NCBI RefSeq assembly: GCF_005144585.1
Contig: NZ_SSMQ01000078.1
Location: 1-58,431 of the forward strand
From: Polyangium fumosum
Lineage (GTDB): Bacteria > Myxococcota_A > Polyangia > Polyangiales > Polyangiaceae
DNA length: 58,431 nucleotides
Direction: 5' to 3'
Under the pieces are notes generated by a model. The model saw nothing but the letters and a program-made list of their open reading frames with translations, did not search any database and was not told where the DNA came from. The translations under genes were made by a program, and so were the position numbers. Positions 40,919 to 46,619 of this stretch are shown piece after piece; the stretch's first letter is position 1, and each line of letters begins with the position of its first letter.

Positions 40919-41034
40919 GACATCCGAGTTTGTCCGCAGTAGGAGGCGCCGCGAAACCTGACGCGGCATCAGAAATCGACCGCCTTGGAGACTTGCCGCG
41001 TTACGTTTCCGTCGCTCGGGTGAACACGAAGGTG

Positions 41035-41982
41035 ATGGCGCCAGTCGAGAAAGCCCCCACCGAGGATCTTTGGACGGAGCTCGCGAAGCTTCGGCCTGTC
41101 GTCGCACGTTTCCTCGAGAGCACGTGCGGAAAGCAAGCCGCCAGCACGGACGCTGTCGACGACGAGACGCAGGACGTGATGGTCGAGGGGTATGAGAGCC
41201 TCTCGGCGTACCGGCCCGAAAGCGGCACGCTGGTGAACTGGCTGCTCGGCATCGCAGCCAACATCCGCAAACGATGGCGGAGAGCGTGCGGCATGCAGGA
41301 GAAGCGATTCGCTCCCACCGATGACAACGATGAAACCCCCGCGTCGCAGCCGTCGCCGGAGCGCGCGGCGATCCTCTCGGAGGCTTGCGACCGCGTCGGA
41401 GAGGCCCTCAAGACGATGCCCACGGAACAGCGAGCTGTCTTCAGCCTGGTCGTGTTTCAGGGGCTCTCGCACGCGGAGGTGGCCAAAGAGCTCGGTATCT
41501 CCGAGGAAGCCTCCCGCATGAAATTCATGCGGGCGCGCGCGTACATTCGAGAGCGCGTCGACGAGGTGCACGGCACCGCGCTGCTCATCCTGTGCGGCCG
41601 AGACCGGCGCTCGAGGGTCCGGGCGAGATGGAAGGGGCGGTTGGAGCTCAGCTACCGCGCCGGCCACGCGTGGAGCGCGCTCATGGCTGCGGCGCTCCTC
41701 GGGTCCGCCAACGCGGCCGCGCCTCGAGACGTCGTCGCGTCGGCGCATACAGCATTCACGCGTCAGGCCTCGATGGGTCGCGCCGCGGAGCCGGTCGCCG
41801 AACCTTCAGAGATGGGCGGAGAGGACCCGGCGGCCCTCGATACACGGGCGTCTGCCGCGGAACCGACGCAGGCCGCGCCAACAGAGCAGGTGCATGAGCG
41901 TCGAGCTCCATCTCACGGGGCGCTCCCGAACGTCGAGGTGCACCCGAGTCGCCTCACCATCCGGTGGCGGAAGAGCCGCTGA
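41035..41982 (+). CDS. ECF-type sigma factor with C-terminal membrane segment
   Basis: The 315-residue product has sigma region 2 (about 20-85, DVMVEGYESLSAYRPESG, LVNWLLGIAANIRKRW) and region 4 (about 125-180, ALKTMPTEQRAVFSLVVF, GLSHAEVAKELGISEEASRM). A basic stretch and one hydrophobic segment (about 212-232, AWSALMAAALLGSANAAA) follow, then a Pro/Ala/Glu-rich extension of about 80 residues that would lie outside the cytoplasm. The fused tail may act as a built-in anti-sigma or sensor. The start is uncertain: ATG 41035 was chosen, GTG 41020 and TTG 40930 are possible. It stands upstream of envelope-protein genes it might control. Confidence 0.75.
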   Translation: MAPVEKAPTEDLWTELAKLRPVVARFLESTCGKQAASTDAVDDETQDVMVEGYESLSAYRPESGTLVNWLLGIAANIRKRWRRACGMQEKRFAPTDDNDETPASQPSPERAAILSEACDRVGEALKTMPTEQRAVFSLVVFQGLSHAEVAKELGISEEASRMKFMRARAYIRERVDEVHGTALLILCGRDRRSRVRARWKGRLELSYRAGHAWSALMAAALLGSANAAAPRDVVASAHTAFTRQASMGRAAEPVAEPSEMGGEDPAALDTRASAAEPTQAAPTEQVHERRAPSHGALPNVEVHPSRLTIRWRKSR

Positions 41983-42433: not shown

Positions 42434-43675
42434 ATGATGAACCGTGGATTATGGCTCGCCTTGCTCGTCGCGCTCAGCGCACCCATGCGAGCGTATGCAG
42501 ACGAGGACACGAAGCCCGCCCCACCCCTCTCGAACCCTGCGGCGCTTCAGCAGGCCACGCACATGGCGCGCTTCACGGCGCTCGTCGCGAAGGCCGAACG
42601 CGAACGGAGGGCCGGTCGGCTCGCCGAGGCAGCGACCGCGTATGCCGAGGCGTTCGAGATCGAGCAGGATCCGCTCGTCGCAGGTCGGCTCGGCGTGTTG
42701 CTCGTCGAGTTCGGCAACCCTACGGAAGCAGCGGATTTGCTGCTCGACGCGATCGAGCGCGCGACGGACGCGCCGGCCGCGGAGCGGGAGAAGTTCCTGA
42801 AGGCGTACGACACCGCGCGGGCGCAGGTCTGTCGCGTCGAGGTGACGGTCTCCGAGGCACACGCGTCGATCTCGCTCGATGGGGTCGTGAAGCAGTCCGA
42901 TGGAATCACGGGCTTCACGATGTTCATCCCGCCGGGGGAGCACGAGCTCCGCGCGAAGCTCAAGGGGTTCGAGGACGGCGTCACGTCCTTCACGGCGTCG
43001 AAGGGTGGAACCCTGCGCGTGGAGCTGACGCTGCTGCCGGTGCGCCCGTTCGTTCCCATCGAGCCGCCGCTGCGCCTGAAGCGGCTTCGACCCGAGCTGG
43101 CCGTGACCCTCGAAGAGCCGCCGAACGACGAGCCGGCGCGCGAGCCGATCGTCGGCGGCGTGGTCGGCGAGGAGCAGAAGAAGAGCACGCGAGGATCCGT
43201 GAGCGCGGGGCCGGTGGTCGTGTTCGGTGTGGCGTCGTGGCAGCCGGCGATCGGTGCGTTCGTGGCGGGTGGTTTGAGGGTAAATGAGTACGTGTCCCTC
43301 GGGCTCGAAGCGCGCGCGGCTTGGCTCGTGTCGGGCGTGCAAGGACGGCCGATCAGCGCAATGACAGCCGGGGGGCTCGTGAGTGCCTGTGGTCACTGGC
43401 GATGGCTCTTTGGCTGCGCGCTCGGTCACTTGGGCGTCCTCAACATCGAGGGGGCCGAGGGGAGCTACCTGCGAGAGTCGTACACCAACCTTCTGCCTGG
43501 TTTAGGCGCGCGGGTAGGGGCGACGTGGAGGTTGACGCGTTCCTTCACGATGCAGGCGGGTGCAGACATCGTGGGCCTTACGCGCGGACTCAAGATCGTT
43601 GCCGGAAAAACGGTTCTTGTTGAGCAACCTCCGGTATTGGCAGGCGCTCATTTTGTCGGTGGATGGGAGTTTTAA
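42434..43675 (+). CDS. TPR/PEGA-type exported protein
   Basis: The 413-residue protein has a signal peptide (about 1-22, ending AYADE). A helical TPR-like region follows (about 45-120, LAEAATAYAEAFEIEQDPLV), then a PEGA-type beta domain (about 133-200, EVTVSEAHASISLDGV, FTMFIPPGEHELRAKLKGF). The C-terminal half (about 255-413) looks like an outer-membrane beta-barrel (GPVVVFGVASWQPAIGAFVA, GLGARVGATWRLTRSF, ending GGWEF). Myxobacteria carry many such proteins; a role in envelope stress or surface assembly is likely but not known. The next gene begins 2 bp after its stop. Confidence 0.78.
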   Translation: MMNRGLWLALLVALSAPMRAYADEDTKPAPPLSNPAALQQATHMARFTALVAKAERERRAGRLAEAATAYAEAFEIEQDPLVAGRLGVLLVEFGNPTEAADLLLDAIERATDAPAAEREKFLKAYDTARAQVCRVEVTVSEAHASISLDGVVKQSDGITGFTMFIPPGEHELRAKLKGFEDGVTSFTASKGGTLRVELTLLPVRPFVPIEPPLRLKRLRPELAVTLEEPPNDEPAREPIVGGVVGEEQKKSTRGSVSAGPVVVFGVASWQPAIGAFVAGGLRVNEYVSLGLEARAAWLVSGVQGRPISAMTAGGLVSACGHWRWLFGCALGHLGVLNIEGAEGSYLRESYTNLLPGLGARVGATWRLTRSFTMQAGADIVGLTRGLKIVAGKTVLVEQPPVLAGAHFVGGWEF

Positions 43676-43677
43676 TT

Positions 43678-44856
43678 ATGCGATTCCTGGTCGGCTCTGT
43701 CGGGATCTTTGCGGGGGCTGTCGTGGCAATGGCTGCATGCACGGCCCCACCCTACGTCAACATATTCGAATGCGATCCGGACCCGCTTTTTCCTACTCCC
43801 GAGTGTATCGATGCGGGCACAGATGCCGACGCCGACGCTGACGCCGGCGACGACGCCGAGGCCGGGGAGGACCCCGACGCAGGCCCACCATGCCCCGGCT
43901 TTTGCGCTCCGGAGCCGAGTGGCGATTTCGGTGGGTCAGCAACACCGGCAGGAGCATGGCCACGCACGCCGATGCTCCTCTGGGTTGGCCCCGTGAGCGA
44001 TATGCCAGCCTTCTGCCCGAAGGAGGTGCCCTATGAGAAGTATCGTCGCTACAGCGGCCTCGTCGCGCCGCCCGCGACGTGCGAGTCCTGTAGCTGCGAG
44101 AAGCCCGAGGGCACGTGTTCGGGGTTGCCCGCGTCGATCGAGATCCGCACGAACGCATGCGAGCAGAGCGGCGGCATGTCGGTGCCTTTCGACGGCCCGG
44201 CCGACTGGGATGGGTCCTGCACGTCCGAAGCCGCGCTCCCGGCTGGCGCCCAATGCGGTGGGCAGCCGTGCGCGCAGTACGTCGGCGCGTCCGCCTTGCC
44301 GGGTCCCATCGAAGAGGGCTGCGCAGTCACGGCCGAGACGCCGGCGTTCACGAAGGAGCGGTCCTGGCTTCTCGGGGGTCTCGCGTGCGAGGTCGAGGAG
44401 CTCGACGGCGCGTGTCCCGAGAGCCGCCGATGCATGCAGGATCTCTCGCTCCCTTGGCTCCAGTGCGTTGCTCTGACGGGCGAGCACACGTGCCCGGGAA
44501 ACTACTCGTACGCGCGGTTCGTGATGTTCGACAAGGAGCCGGCCGACGATCGGGGATGCAACGCGTGCACGTGCGGCGCGCCCGAGGATGGGCTTTGCCT
44601 CGCGTCGCTGCATCTCTACGACGATGCGGCGTGCAGCGCCGCCGCGTCGACGACGTTGACGCTCGGCTCGGTCAAAGAAGCATGCGGCACGATCATCCCT
44701 CCCGGGCGCGTCATTGGCAGCAAGGCGATCACGGATCTCACGTACGTGCCCGGCACGTGCAGCGCGAGCGGGGGCGAGCCGATCGGCGAGGCGCGTGAGG
44801 ACGTGAACACGGCGGTCACGTTCTGCTGCACCTACCCGTTCGCTCTCCCGAAGTAA
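43678..44856 (+). CDS. Cys-rich lipoprotein with Asp/Ala repeat linker
   Basis: The 392-residue product has a lipoprotein signal peptide (AMAAC, Cys about 21), an Asp/Ala/Gly-rich linker (about 45-68, DADADADAGDDAEAGEDPDA) and a long domain with about 28 cysteines (for example CESCSCEKPEGTC, CNACTCGAPEDGLC, CSAAASTTLT and a terminal CCTYPF). It would be an extracellular disulfide-rich surface protein. GGGAG 8 nt ahead supports ATG 43678. It is paired with the PEGA-type gene, 2 bp upstream. I do not recognise the Cys domain. Confidence 0.75.
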   Translation: MRFLVGSVGIFAGAVVAMAACTAPPYVNIFECDPDPLFPTPECIDAGTDADADADAGDDAEAGEDPDAGPPCPGFCAPEPSGDFGGSATPAGAWPRTPMLLWVGPVSDMPAFCPKEVPYEKYRRYSGLVAPPATCESCSCEKPEGTCSGLPASIEIRTNACEQSGGMSVPFDGPADWDGSCTSEAALPAGAQCGGQPCAQYVGASALPGPIEEGCAVTAETPAFTKERSWLLGGLACEVEELDGACPESRRCMQDLSLPWLQCVALTGEHTCPGNYSYARFVMFDKEPADDRGCNACTCGAPEDGLCLASLHLYDDAACSAAASTTLTLGSVKEACGTIIPPGRVIGSKAITDLTYVPGTCSASGGEPIGEAREDVNTAVTFCCTYPFALPK

Positions 44857-45039
44857 GGCCCCAGAAAAAAATCGACGGCCCTGCGTTACGACGGGGGGCC
44901 TTGGAGCGAATACCTGGGTGTGACGGGACGACGAGTCCATCGCCGCTCGCAGAGAGGTTTGCGTGCAGGCCGCCCCTCTCCCATGGGCTGCCCGTAGCAT
45001 GCGATCTCCCTGCGGAGAGCGAAGGACTCCTCCCCCGAG

Positions 45040-45161
45040 GGTTGCTCGTCGCTCGTAGACGGGGCGCCTTTCGCGGCGCGCCCCGACTGCGTCATGTTCC
45101 GGATGACCAGGTTTCGGAAAGGGAGCGGTGCGCTCGAAAGGCGCCCCGTCTTCGGGCGACG
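45040..45161. repeat. long inverted repeat, arms 17 bp perfect plus extensions
   Basis: AGACGGGGCGCCTTTCG (45057-45073) is the exact reverse complement of 45135-45151, with a 61-nt centre. Outside it, GTCGC (45048-45052) pairs with GCGAC (45156-45160) across an internal loop, and GGGT/ACCC pairs further out. The total stem is near 30 bp. It could be a structured RNA, a factor-binding region or the relic of a small mobile element. Confidence 0.65.
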
Positions 45162-45181
45162 ACCCTTTTCAACAACGACCT

Positions 45182-45244
45182 CCAGGAGGGGACGATGGGG
45201 AGTGGTTCTCTGGGCGAGTCTACCTCCTTATCGTCCCCCCCTGG
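45182..45244. repeat. inverted repeat, arms 15 bp with one mismatch
   Basis: CCAGGAGGGGACGAT (45182-45196) is complementary to ATCGTCCCCCCCTGG (45230-45244) with one G/T pair in RNA, around a 33-nt loop. It follows the larger inverted repeat by about 20 bp. No T run follows, so it is unlikely to be a simple terminator. Confidence 0.6.
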
Positions 45245-45532
45245 GGGTCGTGTTCTACCGCTTGGAGGGCGCATGGGAGGAGGGGCCCGCGGCTGTGCGA
45301 TGCGACCCGCATCTTGATTCCAATGGCCCGCGCTCGATGAGCCCGTCCGCTCGCGCGGCGCCGCAGGATCGAGCAGGTCGAGCGCATACCTGGGCAAACG
45401 CTTCGTCTGCGCAGATCTCCTCGGGAATGTGCCCCCCGCCGTGCGGCCGTGACAATCCTGCGGCGAGCAGCACTATCTCGACTGCGCGCAAGATTGACCT
45501 CGGAATGCGAAGAACGTTAATGTGTCCTTGCC

Positions 45533-45766
45533 ATGCGAAACCGACACGGTACGCGCACGAAGTGGGCAGAGCTGTGCCGCTCGAATGAGTTCAGCGGGAG
45601 GTGGGTGGCGCTGGAGAATGTCGAGTACAAGGTCGGCACCATCGAGCCACACGAAGGCGACGTGGTCGACAGGGATACGGATATCGGCGCGCTGTGCAGC
45701 CGGATGCGAGCGTCCGATCGCAAGGAATGCGTGATTGTACACTGCGCCGACAACGGCGAGCCCTGA
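45533..45766 (+). CDS. small conserved-looking protein, unknown
   Basis: The 77-residue protein has a protein-like composition unlike the Arg/Pro-rich chance frames around it: FSGRWVALENVEYKVGTIEP, EGDVVDRDTDIGALCSRMRA and ECVIVHC near the end. I recall short myxobacterial proteins of this layout (GRWVAL..., EGDVVD, LC.R...), none with a known function. No good ribosome-binding site is visible ahead of ATG 45533. It lies downstream of the large inverted repeats. Confidence 0.6.
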   Translation: MRNRHGTRTKWAELCRSNEFSGRWVALENVEYKVGTIEPHEGDVVDRDTDIGALCSRMRASDRKECVIVHCADNGEP

Positions 45767-46095
45767 CCGAGGCCGCCCGCCCCACGGAGGGATACGGGTT
45801 TGGCGCGGTCGTTCGTCCACGCGAGGCATGCTCGCCGTCCCCGGACGAGGCGCATCGAATGCACGTCCCGCCTCAGGCGGACGTGGAAGGCCTCCTGCCG
45901 CCAGGTCACCTCGCTGAGCCCCCGAGGGGGTTCCGTGGGTGGGTGAGGTCCGAACGTCGACGGGATGCCTGGAAACACCCTCGGAGCAAAGTCCCGCGGC
46001 CATCGTGGGGTTGTGCAGGACGCGCATCTGCGCCAGGAAGAGGGGCGGGCCGGCTCGACCGATGGGGGGGGACCGGCACCCAGGAGGAGGTGTTC
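45767..46095. other. 329-bp stretch without a supported gene
   Basis: I see no gene, repeat or clear structure here. A frame joined to the holin-like gene stays open upstream to about 45601 but is Arg/Gly-rich and overlaps the small gene, so it is not used. The last 20 bp carry GGAGGAGG, the ribosome-binding site of the next gene. Confidence 0.5.
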
Positions 46096-46458
46096 ATGTT
46101 GAAGACGTTCGTCAGTCAAGCCATCGCGGCGGGGCTCGCGGTCCTCATCGCCAGTGCAGTCATCCCCGGCGTCCGGATCCGCAAGGGCAACACGGCGATC
46201 GGCATCGCGTTCGCGTTCGCGCTGCTCAACCTTTTCTTCGGGTGGCTCGTCAAGGTCGTGCTCGCCATCGTGCTCCTGCCCGCCGCCCTGCTCACGTTCG
46301 GCTTGCCCTACCTCGTGTTCGGCCTGCTCGTGAACGCGATCTTGCTCTACGTCACCGACAAGCTCATCGACGATTTCGAGATCAAAGGCTTCTGGCCGCT
46401 CGTCGGCACGGCCGGGCTGATCTCCGTCGCCGCGTGGCTCCTCCCGCGCCTCTTCTGA
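46096..46458 (+). CDS. phage holin family 4-type membrane protein
   Basis: The 120-residue protein has four hydrophobic helices in the pattern of the PF04020-type family (mycobacterial-type four-helix holin superfamily): FVSQAIAAGLAVLIASAVIPG, IAFAFALLNLFFGWLVKVV, LLPAALLTFGLPYLVFGLLV and GLISVAAWLLP. The DDFEIKGFWP motif before the last helix is typical. Despite the name, chromosomal members far from prophages are common and their role in the inner membrane is unclear. GGAGGAGG 6-8 nt before ATG 46096 is a strong ribosome-binding site. Confidence 0.85.
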   Translation: MLKTFVSQAIAAGLAVLIASAVIPGVRIRKGNTAIGIAFAFALLNLFFGWLVKVVLAIVLLPAALLTFGLPYLVFGLLVNAILLYVTDKLIDDFEIKGFWPLVGTAGLISVAAWLLPRLF

Positions 46459-46619
46459 GGGCGGGCGCGCCCGCGGCCGCTCCCACGCCCGCCCGCGACG
46501 CGCTCGCAATCGCTTGATACGATGGATTCCCTGCGGGCGCATGCATACGCATGCGCCGATCGCGCCTCGACTTGACGCGAGACCCGGCGACGCGACATTG
46601 CCACCGGGGTGCATTTGTT

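What the first reader, a model, noticed from the sequence alone, without database searches (positions are those of the whole stretch)
45040..45244. Two large inverted repeats in a gene-free 676-bp stretch
One repeat has 17-bp perfect arms plus outer pairing, the next has 15-bp arms with one mismatch. They lie within about 200 bp, have no T runs and adjoin no gene closely. This is a candidate structured RNA or a small non-autonomous mobile element not explained by the annotated genes.
Basis: seen in the sequence. Interest (0 to 1): 0.6.

Follow-up and report, generated by a model that had tools for sequence, protein, structure and literature searches.

The report
Orphaned operon hairpins in Polyangium
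Two large hairpins in this soil bacterium belong to a family of RNA hairpins not in the RNA catalogue searched; in related gene clusters of the same genus they usually stand right in front of one particular gene, and here that gene has been lost while the hairpins remain.

Summary
Both hairpins are real: hp1 45046-45162 and hp2 45175-45251, the only two with 18 or more Watson-Crick pairs found in the window. They match no Rfam family. They belong to a Polyangium hairpin family tied to a paralogous gene cluster: ECF sigma factor (B), TPR/PEGA-like protein (C), Cys-rich lipoprotein-like protein (D), hairpins, then E (predicted winged helix) and F. In three Polyangium genomes, 26 of 26 hp2 places found by the covariance model lie downstream of a D gene (25) or a truncated C gene (1), on its strand. 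hp2 and hp3 show compensatory changes; on the gene strand G-U exceeds A-C, 83:12 in hp2 and 25:2 in hp1. In 20 of 27 E genes the last hairpin ends 14-40 nt (median 17) before the start codon. In the window E and F are gone and homology stops just after the start codon: an orphan copy. Best reading: cis-acting intercistronic/leader hairpins that set E-F output relative to B-C-D by mRNA processing or protection; the mechanism is inferred. Rivals: binding site for E, attenuator, REP-like palindrome.

The parts
45046..45162 (+). hp1: long hairpin; apical region GACTGCGTCATG..ATGACCAGGT largely conserved in 8 aligned sequences
45175..45251 (+). hp2: long hairpin with apical motif TCTGGGCGAG; member of the genus-wide hp2 family (model R1)
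45264..45275 (+). relic translation start: Shine-Dalgarno GGAGG (45264-45268) and ATG (45273-45275) where gene E starts in related clusters; homology to them ends at 45276; the frame stops after 14 codons (stop 45315-45317)
43663..44856 (+). gene D: Cys-rich, lipoprotein-like (by eye), no Pfam/NCBIfam match; paralogues precede the hairpins in the other clusters
42434..43675 (+). gene C: TPR/PEGA-like protein (all Pfam matches below the curated cut-offs); a C-terminal beta-barrel is my guess, not tested
40930..41982 (+). gene B: ECF sigma factor with a C-terminal extension (ORF as listed, true start not checked)

Best explanation
hp1 and hp2 are an orphaned copy of a genus-specific, cis-acting RNA leader. 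In related clusters one to three long hairpins (types hp1, hp2, hp3, in varying combination) stand between the B-C-D part and gene E, and the last one usually ends just upstream of the Shine-Dalgarno of E. Shown: structure, family, gene context, strand, spacing, compensatory changes. Inferred: the hairpins are transcribed with the cluster and act as intercistronic processing/protection elements (3'-end barrier for B-C-D mRNA, structured 5' end for E-F mRNA, possibly an RNase III substrate), so that E-F are made at a different level from B-C-D. In the window E and F are missing and the hairpins are now at most a 3' element of the D transcript.
For: Own-genome copies at 91% and 86% identity plus more distant ones, in paralogous clusters. 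R1 on 60 family genomes: 26 distinct places in the 3 Polyangium genomes of that draw; 25 have a D gene within about 2.3 kb upstream and 1 a truncated C gene, all 26 on the cluster strand. Counting all 36 hp2 copies (G022 match left out), 36 of 36 are on the strand of the cluster genes. Compensation: hp2, 36 hand-chosen sequences, 23 pairs, 94.1% paired, 7 pairs changed on both sides, 0 of 500 shuffles reach the observed value on any of five measures; hp3, 11 sequences, 5 of 29 pairs changed on both sides. G-U versus A-C in stems on the gene strand: hp2 83:12 (13 columns against 2), hp1 25:2 (6 against 1). Spacing: in 20 of 27 distinct E genes a hairpin of >=17 pairs ends 14-40 nt (median 17) before the start. 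DNA downstream of 72 D entries of two Polyangium genomes has 49 hairpins of >=18 pairs in 192 kb; 19 loci at D genes of five other genera have 2 in 78 kb. Precedent: hairpins without a U tract bounding differentially stable operon segments, and papBA-type structured 5' ends (PMC5927463, passages).
Against: No transcript data. hp1 alone has weak covariation (1 of 31 pairs both-sided, 8 sequences). In one search two slid controls (-3 and +3) have more cells with both-sided changes (17 and 16) than the structure (13), although far fewer paired cells; and related sequences can beat the shuffles without structure. 6 of 13 hp2 places in the window's own genome, this one included, have no E match behind them. 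About two thirds of the D entries scanned (48 of 72, by eye) have no hp2-class hairpin. One hp2-class hairpin (L278, G001 near 168.0 kb) has no cluster gene within about 6 kb. The Shine-Dalgarno stretch is only partly exposed in the fold (mean unpaired 0.18-0.60). In some E genes a similar hairpin lies inside the ORF (L087 by R1; L011 and L042 by eye only). The - strand fold is strong too. REP elements also show G-T pairs in stems (PMC3733652, passage).
Confidence: 0.5

Rival explanations
1. Autogenous or in-cluster protein-binding site: the conserved apical motif (TCTGGGCRAGC in hp2) on a variable stem is recognised by a cluster protein, most simply E, which feeds back on its own synthesis.
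For: The loop motif stays while stems differ widely (e.g. L146, L157, L087, L089). The C-terminal part of E is modelled as a winged helix (residues 131-208, block pLDDT 82-90; whole model mean 67.1; best VIA Z 7.4, 87 aligned, rmsd 3.4). 9 of 9 strong E matches in G000 (above 130 bits) have hp1, hp2 or hp3 in front.
Against: Winged helix is a common arrangement; Z under 8 and no Foldseek match at E <= 0.001 show no function. hp1, hp2 and hp3 have different loops. Hairpins persist where E is lost.
Confidence: 0.15
2. Palindromic repeat of REP/MITE/RPE type that spreads and happens to live in these clusters.
For: Several copies per genome, two hp2 in one spacer (L274), mixed order of hp1/hp2/hp3, copies inside ORFs, one isolated copy (L278).
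Against: 26 of 26 model-found places are tied to one gene family and one strand; the loop motif alone is not enriched genome-wide (38 against 33 control in G000, 37 against 42 in G001); GC-rich (hp2 0.62); no phage or plasmid match.
Confidence: 0.17
3. Transcription attenuator/terminator between B-C-D and E-F.
For: Position between two gene groups; long GC stems. In L011 and L012 another hairpin (hp5) just before hp1 is followed by five or six T (sequences, read by eye), like an intrinsic terminator.
Against: hp1 and hp2 have no T run; 0 terminator-like sites in the window region. A terminator needs no conserved loop.
Confidence: 0.13
4. Recombination or deletion junction: the palindromes mark places where modules are exchanged or lost.
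For: In the window homology ends right after the hp2-ATG unit; in L085 similarity to C ends about 30 nt before hp2; some E genes match best a different locus than their D (e.g. L039/L044).
Against: C-D, D-E and C-E distances correlate about equally (0.49, 0.56, 0.44; 15 loci), so the hairpin is no special breakpoint.
Confidence: 0.05

Closest known systems
Intercistronic protective hairpins (malEFG, papBA; PMC5927463, passages; puf seen there only in the reference list)
   Same: Stable hairpin without U tract between genes of one transcription direction, next to the downstream gene
   Different: Here about 24-28 pairs long, a recognisable sequence family with conserved loops, one to three types in varying combination, 36 hp2 copies seen over six genomes of one genus; no decay data
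REP/BIME and Rickettsia palindromic elements (PMC3733652, PMC10969869, passages)
   Same: Palindromic, several copies, often between co-directional genes, G-T pairs in stems, some copies inside ORFs
   Different: Longer stems; tied to one gene family; one orientation; GTAG/CGTC tags and RAYT genes were not looked for
MITEs (PMC10969869, passages)
   Same: Short inverted-repeat units whose transcripts fold strongly
   Different: Not scattered among unrelated genes; GC-rich where MITEs are typically AT-rich; target duplications not tested
Autogenous leader RNAs such as ribosomal protein leaders (recalled; listings only)
   Same: Structured 5' leader close to a Shine-Dalgarno, possibly bound by the encoded protein
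   Different: No binding evidence; no Rfam match

Membership tests
Any Rfam 15 family | score at or above the gathering threshold | tested here: not met
   0 matches in the window; with the E-value threshold only sub-threshold microRNA models
Intrinsic terminator | GC stem followed by a T run | tested here: not met
   0 sites in 44500-46400
Intercistronic protective hairpin | stable hairpin without U tract between co-directional genes | tested here: met
   met in related clusters; in the window itself the downstream gene is missing; U tract tested for the window only
Intercistronic protective hairpin | boundary of differentially stable mRNA segments | not testable with these tools
   needs RNA-seq/term-seq
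MITE/REP | dispersed over unrelated genomic places | tested here: not met
   26 of 26 R1 places next to cluster genes; one isolated motif hairpin outside, not among these 26 (L278)
MITE | target site duplications / empty sites | not tested
   homology of relatives to the window's right flank stops at 45984, before the hairpins; the left flank was not compared
REP | GTAG or CGTC tag and a RAYT transposase | not tested
   no search made
Structured cis-RNA | compensatory base changes beyond shuffles | tested here: met
   hp2: (0 of 500 shuffles; two slid controls have more both-sided cells); hp3: (no shuffle control run); hp1 weak:
Structured cis-RNA | fixed position relative to a gene | tested here: met
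   20 of 27 distinct E genes

The most novel reading that the evidence does not exclude
A new RNA regulatory system: a swappable set of leader hairpins with conserved loops (hp1, hp2, hp3) read by a cluster-encoded winged-helix protein (E) or its paralogues, wiring many paralogous ECF-sigma/lipoprotein clusters of Polyangium into one post-transcriptional network.
Probability: 0.15. Interest if true: 0.75.

Novelty: new variant of a known kind. Interest (0 to 1): 0.5.

Why it matters
It turns two lone inverted repeats into members of an uncatalogued hairpin family with a clear gene partner. The family sits in an expanded, uncharacterised sigma factor/lipoprotein gene family (28 to 49 D matches, fragments included, in three genomes) and offers a natural set of replicate leaders, with and without the downstream gene, for testing how intercistronic hairpins set gene output in GC-rich myxobacteria.

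Tried and rejected
Rfam: only sub-threshold microRNA models, rejected as generic hairpin matches. tRNA/tmRNA: none. Phage and plasmid DNA: none. PADLOC: only CARF-labelled matches (best E 8.7e-6) to the sigma region of one protein, rejected. Coding reading of hp2: an ORF often runs through it, but motif frame and loop length vary between copies (sequences, read by eye), so rejected. Loop motif alone as a genome-wide signal: not enriched. Start-site sequestration: the Shine-Dalgarno is partly paired, no clear case. Module exchange at the hairpin: no stronger incongruence across it. Structure of F: confidence too low to use (mean pLDDT 53.5). PDB folds of E are common winged-helix arrangements; families not listed are not excluded. 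Papers: none held 'Polyangium' with intergenic, repeat and palindromic; 2 hold 'Polyangium' and 'noncoding RNA', seen as a listing; some searches were seen as listings; passages were seen of PMC5927463, PMC3733652 and PMC10969869. attC-like sites and kissing loops were considered from memory only and not tested.

Counting notes; 28 rows, L035 and L269 being one locus (27 distinct). Start coordinates given to the script were off by 3 to 9 bases in L012, L272 and L274 and were corrected by eye. L011 and L042 (hp1, 27 nt before the start by the coordinates) and L083 (hp3) have a hairpin at the same place that the finder scored below 17 pairs; L044, L041 and L272 have the nearest one 68, 88 and 97 nt away; L087 has none upstream; 46 entries made from 49 G000 rows (fragments merged, one at a contig end left out) and 26 of 43 G001 rows; 24 of these 72 have an hp2-class hairpin, counted by eye., random control: 90 kb around motif occurrences has 8 hairpins of >=18 pairs, five centred on the motif by which the loci were picked, one (hp6) beside a D cluster, two unrelated; 76 model matches were reduced to 40 by a motif filter meant to keep the gene strand; on those 40 G-U is 94 and A-C 19. 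One search used stricter filters, which lose weak matches, and drew 3 of the 6 Polyangium genomes held. G000 has 14 E matches; 9 are strong, two at 68 bits have none of the three hairpin types before them, three near 30 bits were not examined. Note 91 gives the relic ATG as 45271; 45273 is right.

Full report
Observation. Both inverted repeats exist. Folded as RNA the pair reaches -150.1 kcal/mol on the gene strand (z -11.4, 0 of 200 shuffles) and -131.5 on the other (z -9.3). They are the only hairpins with 18 or more Watson-Crick pairs that the finder (loop up to 75 nt) sees in the window; 20 whole-window shuffles never gave two. There is no terminator-like site nearby and no Rfam family.

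Relatives. In the window's own genome (13.0 Mb, 201 contigs) the stretch has copies at 91% and 86% identity and more distant ones. All six genomes held of the genus have matches. The ten E relatives found in GTDB contigs are all titled Polyangium. A covariance model of hp2 (18 sequences) run on 60 family genomes matched 4: the three Polyangium genomes of that draw, and G022, where the match is a plain palindrome without cluster genes.

Gene context. The copies lie in paralogous clusters: B (ECF sigma factor), C (TPR/PEGA-like), D (Cys-rich, lipoprotein-like), in some a further sigma factor after D, hairpins, then E and F. D, E and F have no Pfam or NCBIfam match at the cut-offs. D is a large family: 49, 43 and 28 matches, fragments included, in three Polyangium genomes; 43 of 79 family genomes have at least one. 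Of the 26 distinct hp2 places in the three genomes, 25 are within about 2.3 kb downstream of a D gene and one follows a truncated C gene, all on the same strand. D does not require the hairpin: about 24 of 72 D entries of G000 and G001 have an hp2-class one. At D genes of five other genera, 19 loci, only 2 hairpins of >=18 pairs occur in 77.7 kb, one of them inside D, against 49 in 192 kb in Polyangium; in two of the 19 (L291, L292) tblastn did not see D, the stretch starting at its end.

Position. Where E is present, the last hairpin, of type hp1, hp2 or hp3, ends 14-40 nt before the start codon in 20 of 27 distinct E genes, median 17. Three more have a weaker hairpin there; four do not. In G000 all nine E matches above 130 bits (one a fragment) have hp1, hp2 or hp3 in front; of five weaker matches two lack them and three were not examined.

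RNA evidence. For hp2, 36 hand-chosen sequences and 23 pairs: 94.1% of cells paired, 7 pairs with changes on both sides, 0 of 500 shuffles as high on the five measures; slid versions pair 49-64%, though two of them show more both-sided cells (17 and 16 against 13). Related sequences can exceed such shuffles without structure, so this is support, not proof. hp3: 5 of 29 pairs with both-sided changes in 11 sequences. hp1: 1 of 31 in 8. On the gene strand G-U exceeds A-C 83:12 in hp2 and 25:2 in hp1. More distant hairpins keep the loop TCTGGGCGAG while much of the stem differs.

The window copy. B, C and D are present and open. After hp2 the Shine-Dalgarno and ATG remain (45264-45275), but homology ends at 45276 and the frame closes after 14 codons. 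Searched with the E and F proteins of the alignments, the window shows neither. 6 of 13 hp2 places in G000, this one included, have no E match behind them. A similar ruin is L085, where similarity to C stops about 30 nt before hp2.

Mechanism. Shown: a hairpin family, its strand, its gene partner, its spacing. Inferred: transcription across it, and action in cis on mRNA ends and levels. I favour processing/protection that uncouples E-F from B-C-D, by analogy with hairpins that bound stable operon segments and with papBA (PMC5927463, passages). The conserved loop suggests recognition; E, modelled as a winged helix in its C-terminal part, is a candidate reader but untested.

Against this reading: no expression data; hairpins without E and many D genes without hairpins; one isolated copy (L278); hairpins inside some E reading frames (L087 by model, L011 and L042 by eye); a strong fold on the other strand too; and REP repeats also show G-T pairs in stems (PMC3733652, passage).

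Verdict. Observation confirmed; structured RNA supported; mobile element not supported; the window copy is an orphan of a genus-specific leader family.

Noticed in passing
L268 3420-3458; L276 6184-6222; variants downstream of D in L143 (C22b) and L162 (C145): A second palindrome, CTAGAACATCGAGCGGTT..AACCGCTCGATGTTCTAG and variants, recurs in these loci.
   Followed up: no
window 46481-46553: Synteny break: the stretch to its left and the dehydrogenase gene to its right each match relatives at 82-91% identity but at different places there.
   Followed up: partly
L011 and L012, just before hp1: A further long hairpin (hp5) followed by five or six T looks like an intrinsic terminator between D and hp1 (sequences, by eye).
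   Followed up: no
L089 5563-5670, L090, L177 1488-1596: A very long palindrome (hp6, GGATCACGAGCATCACGAGGGCG...) follows an hp2-class hairpin with a different stem.
   Followed up: no
L278 5938-6018 (G001 C1 near 168.0 kb): One hp2-class hairpin without a recognisable cluster gene within about 6 kb.
   Followed up: partly
window 45533-45766: Small ORF of 77 codons at the edge of the gene-free stretch, read by eye, not searched for relatives.
   Followed up: no
G036 C1 3865512-3868477: Three D-like matches in tandem in a family member of another genus.
   Followed up: no
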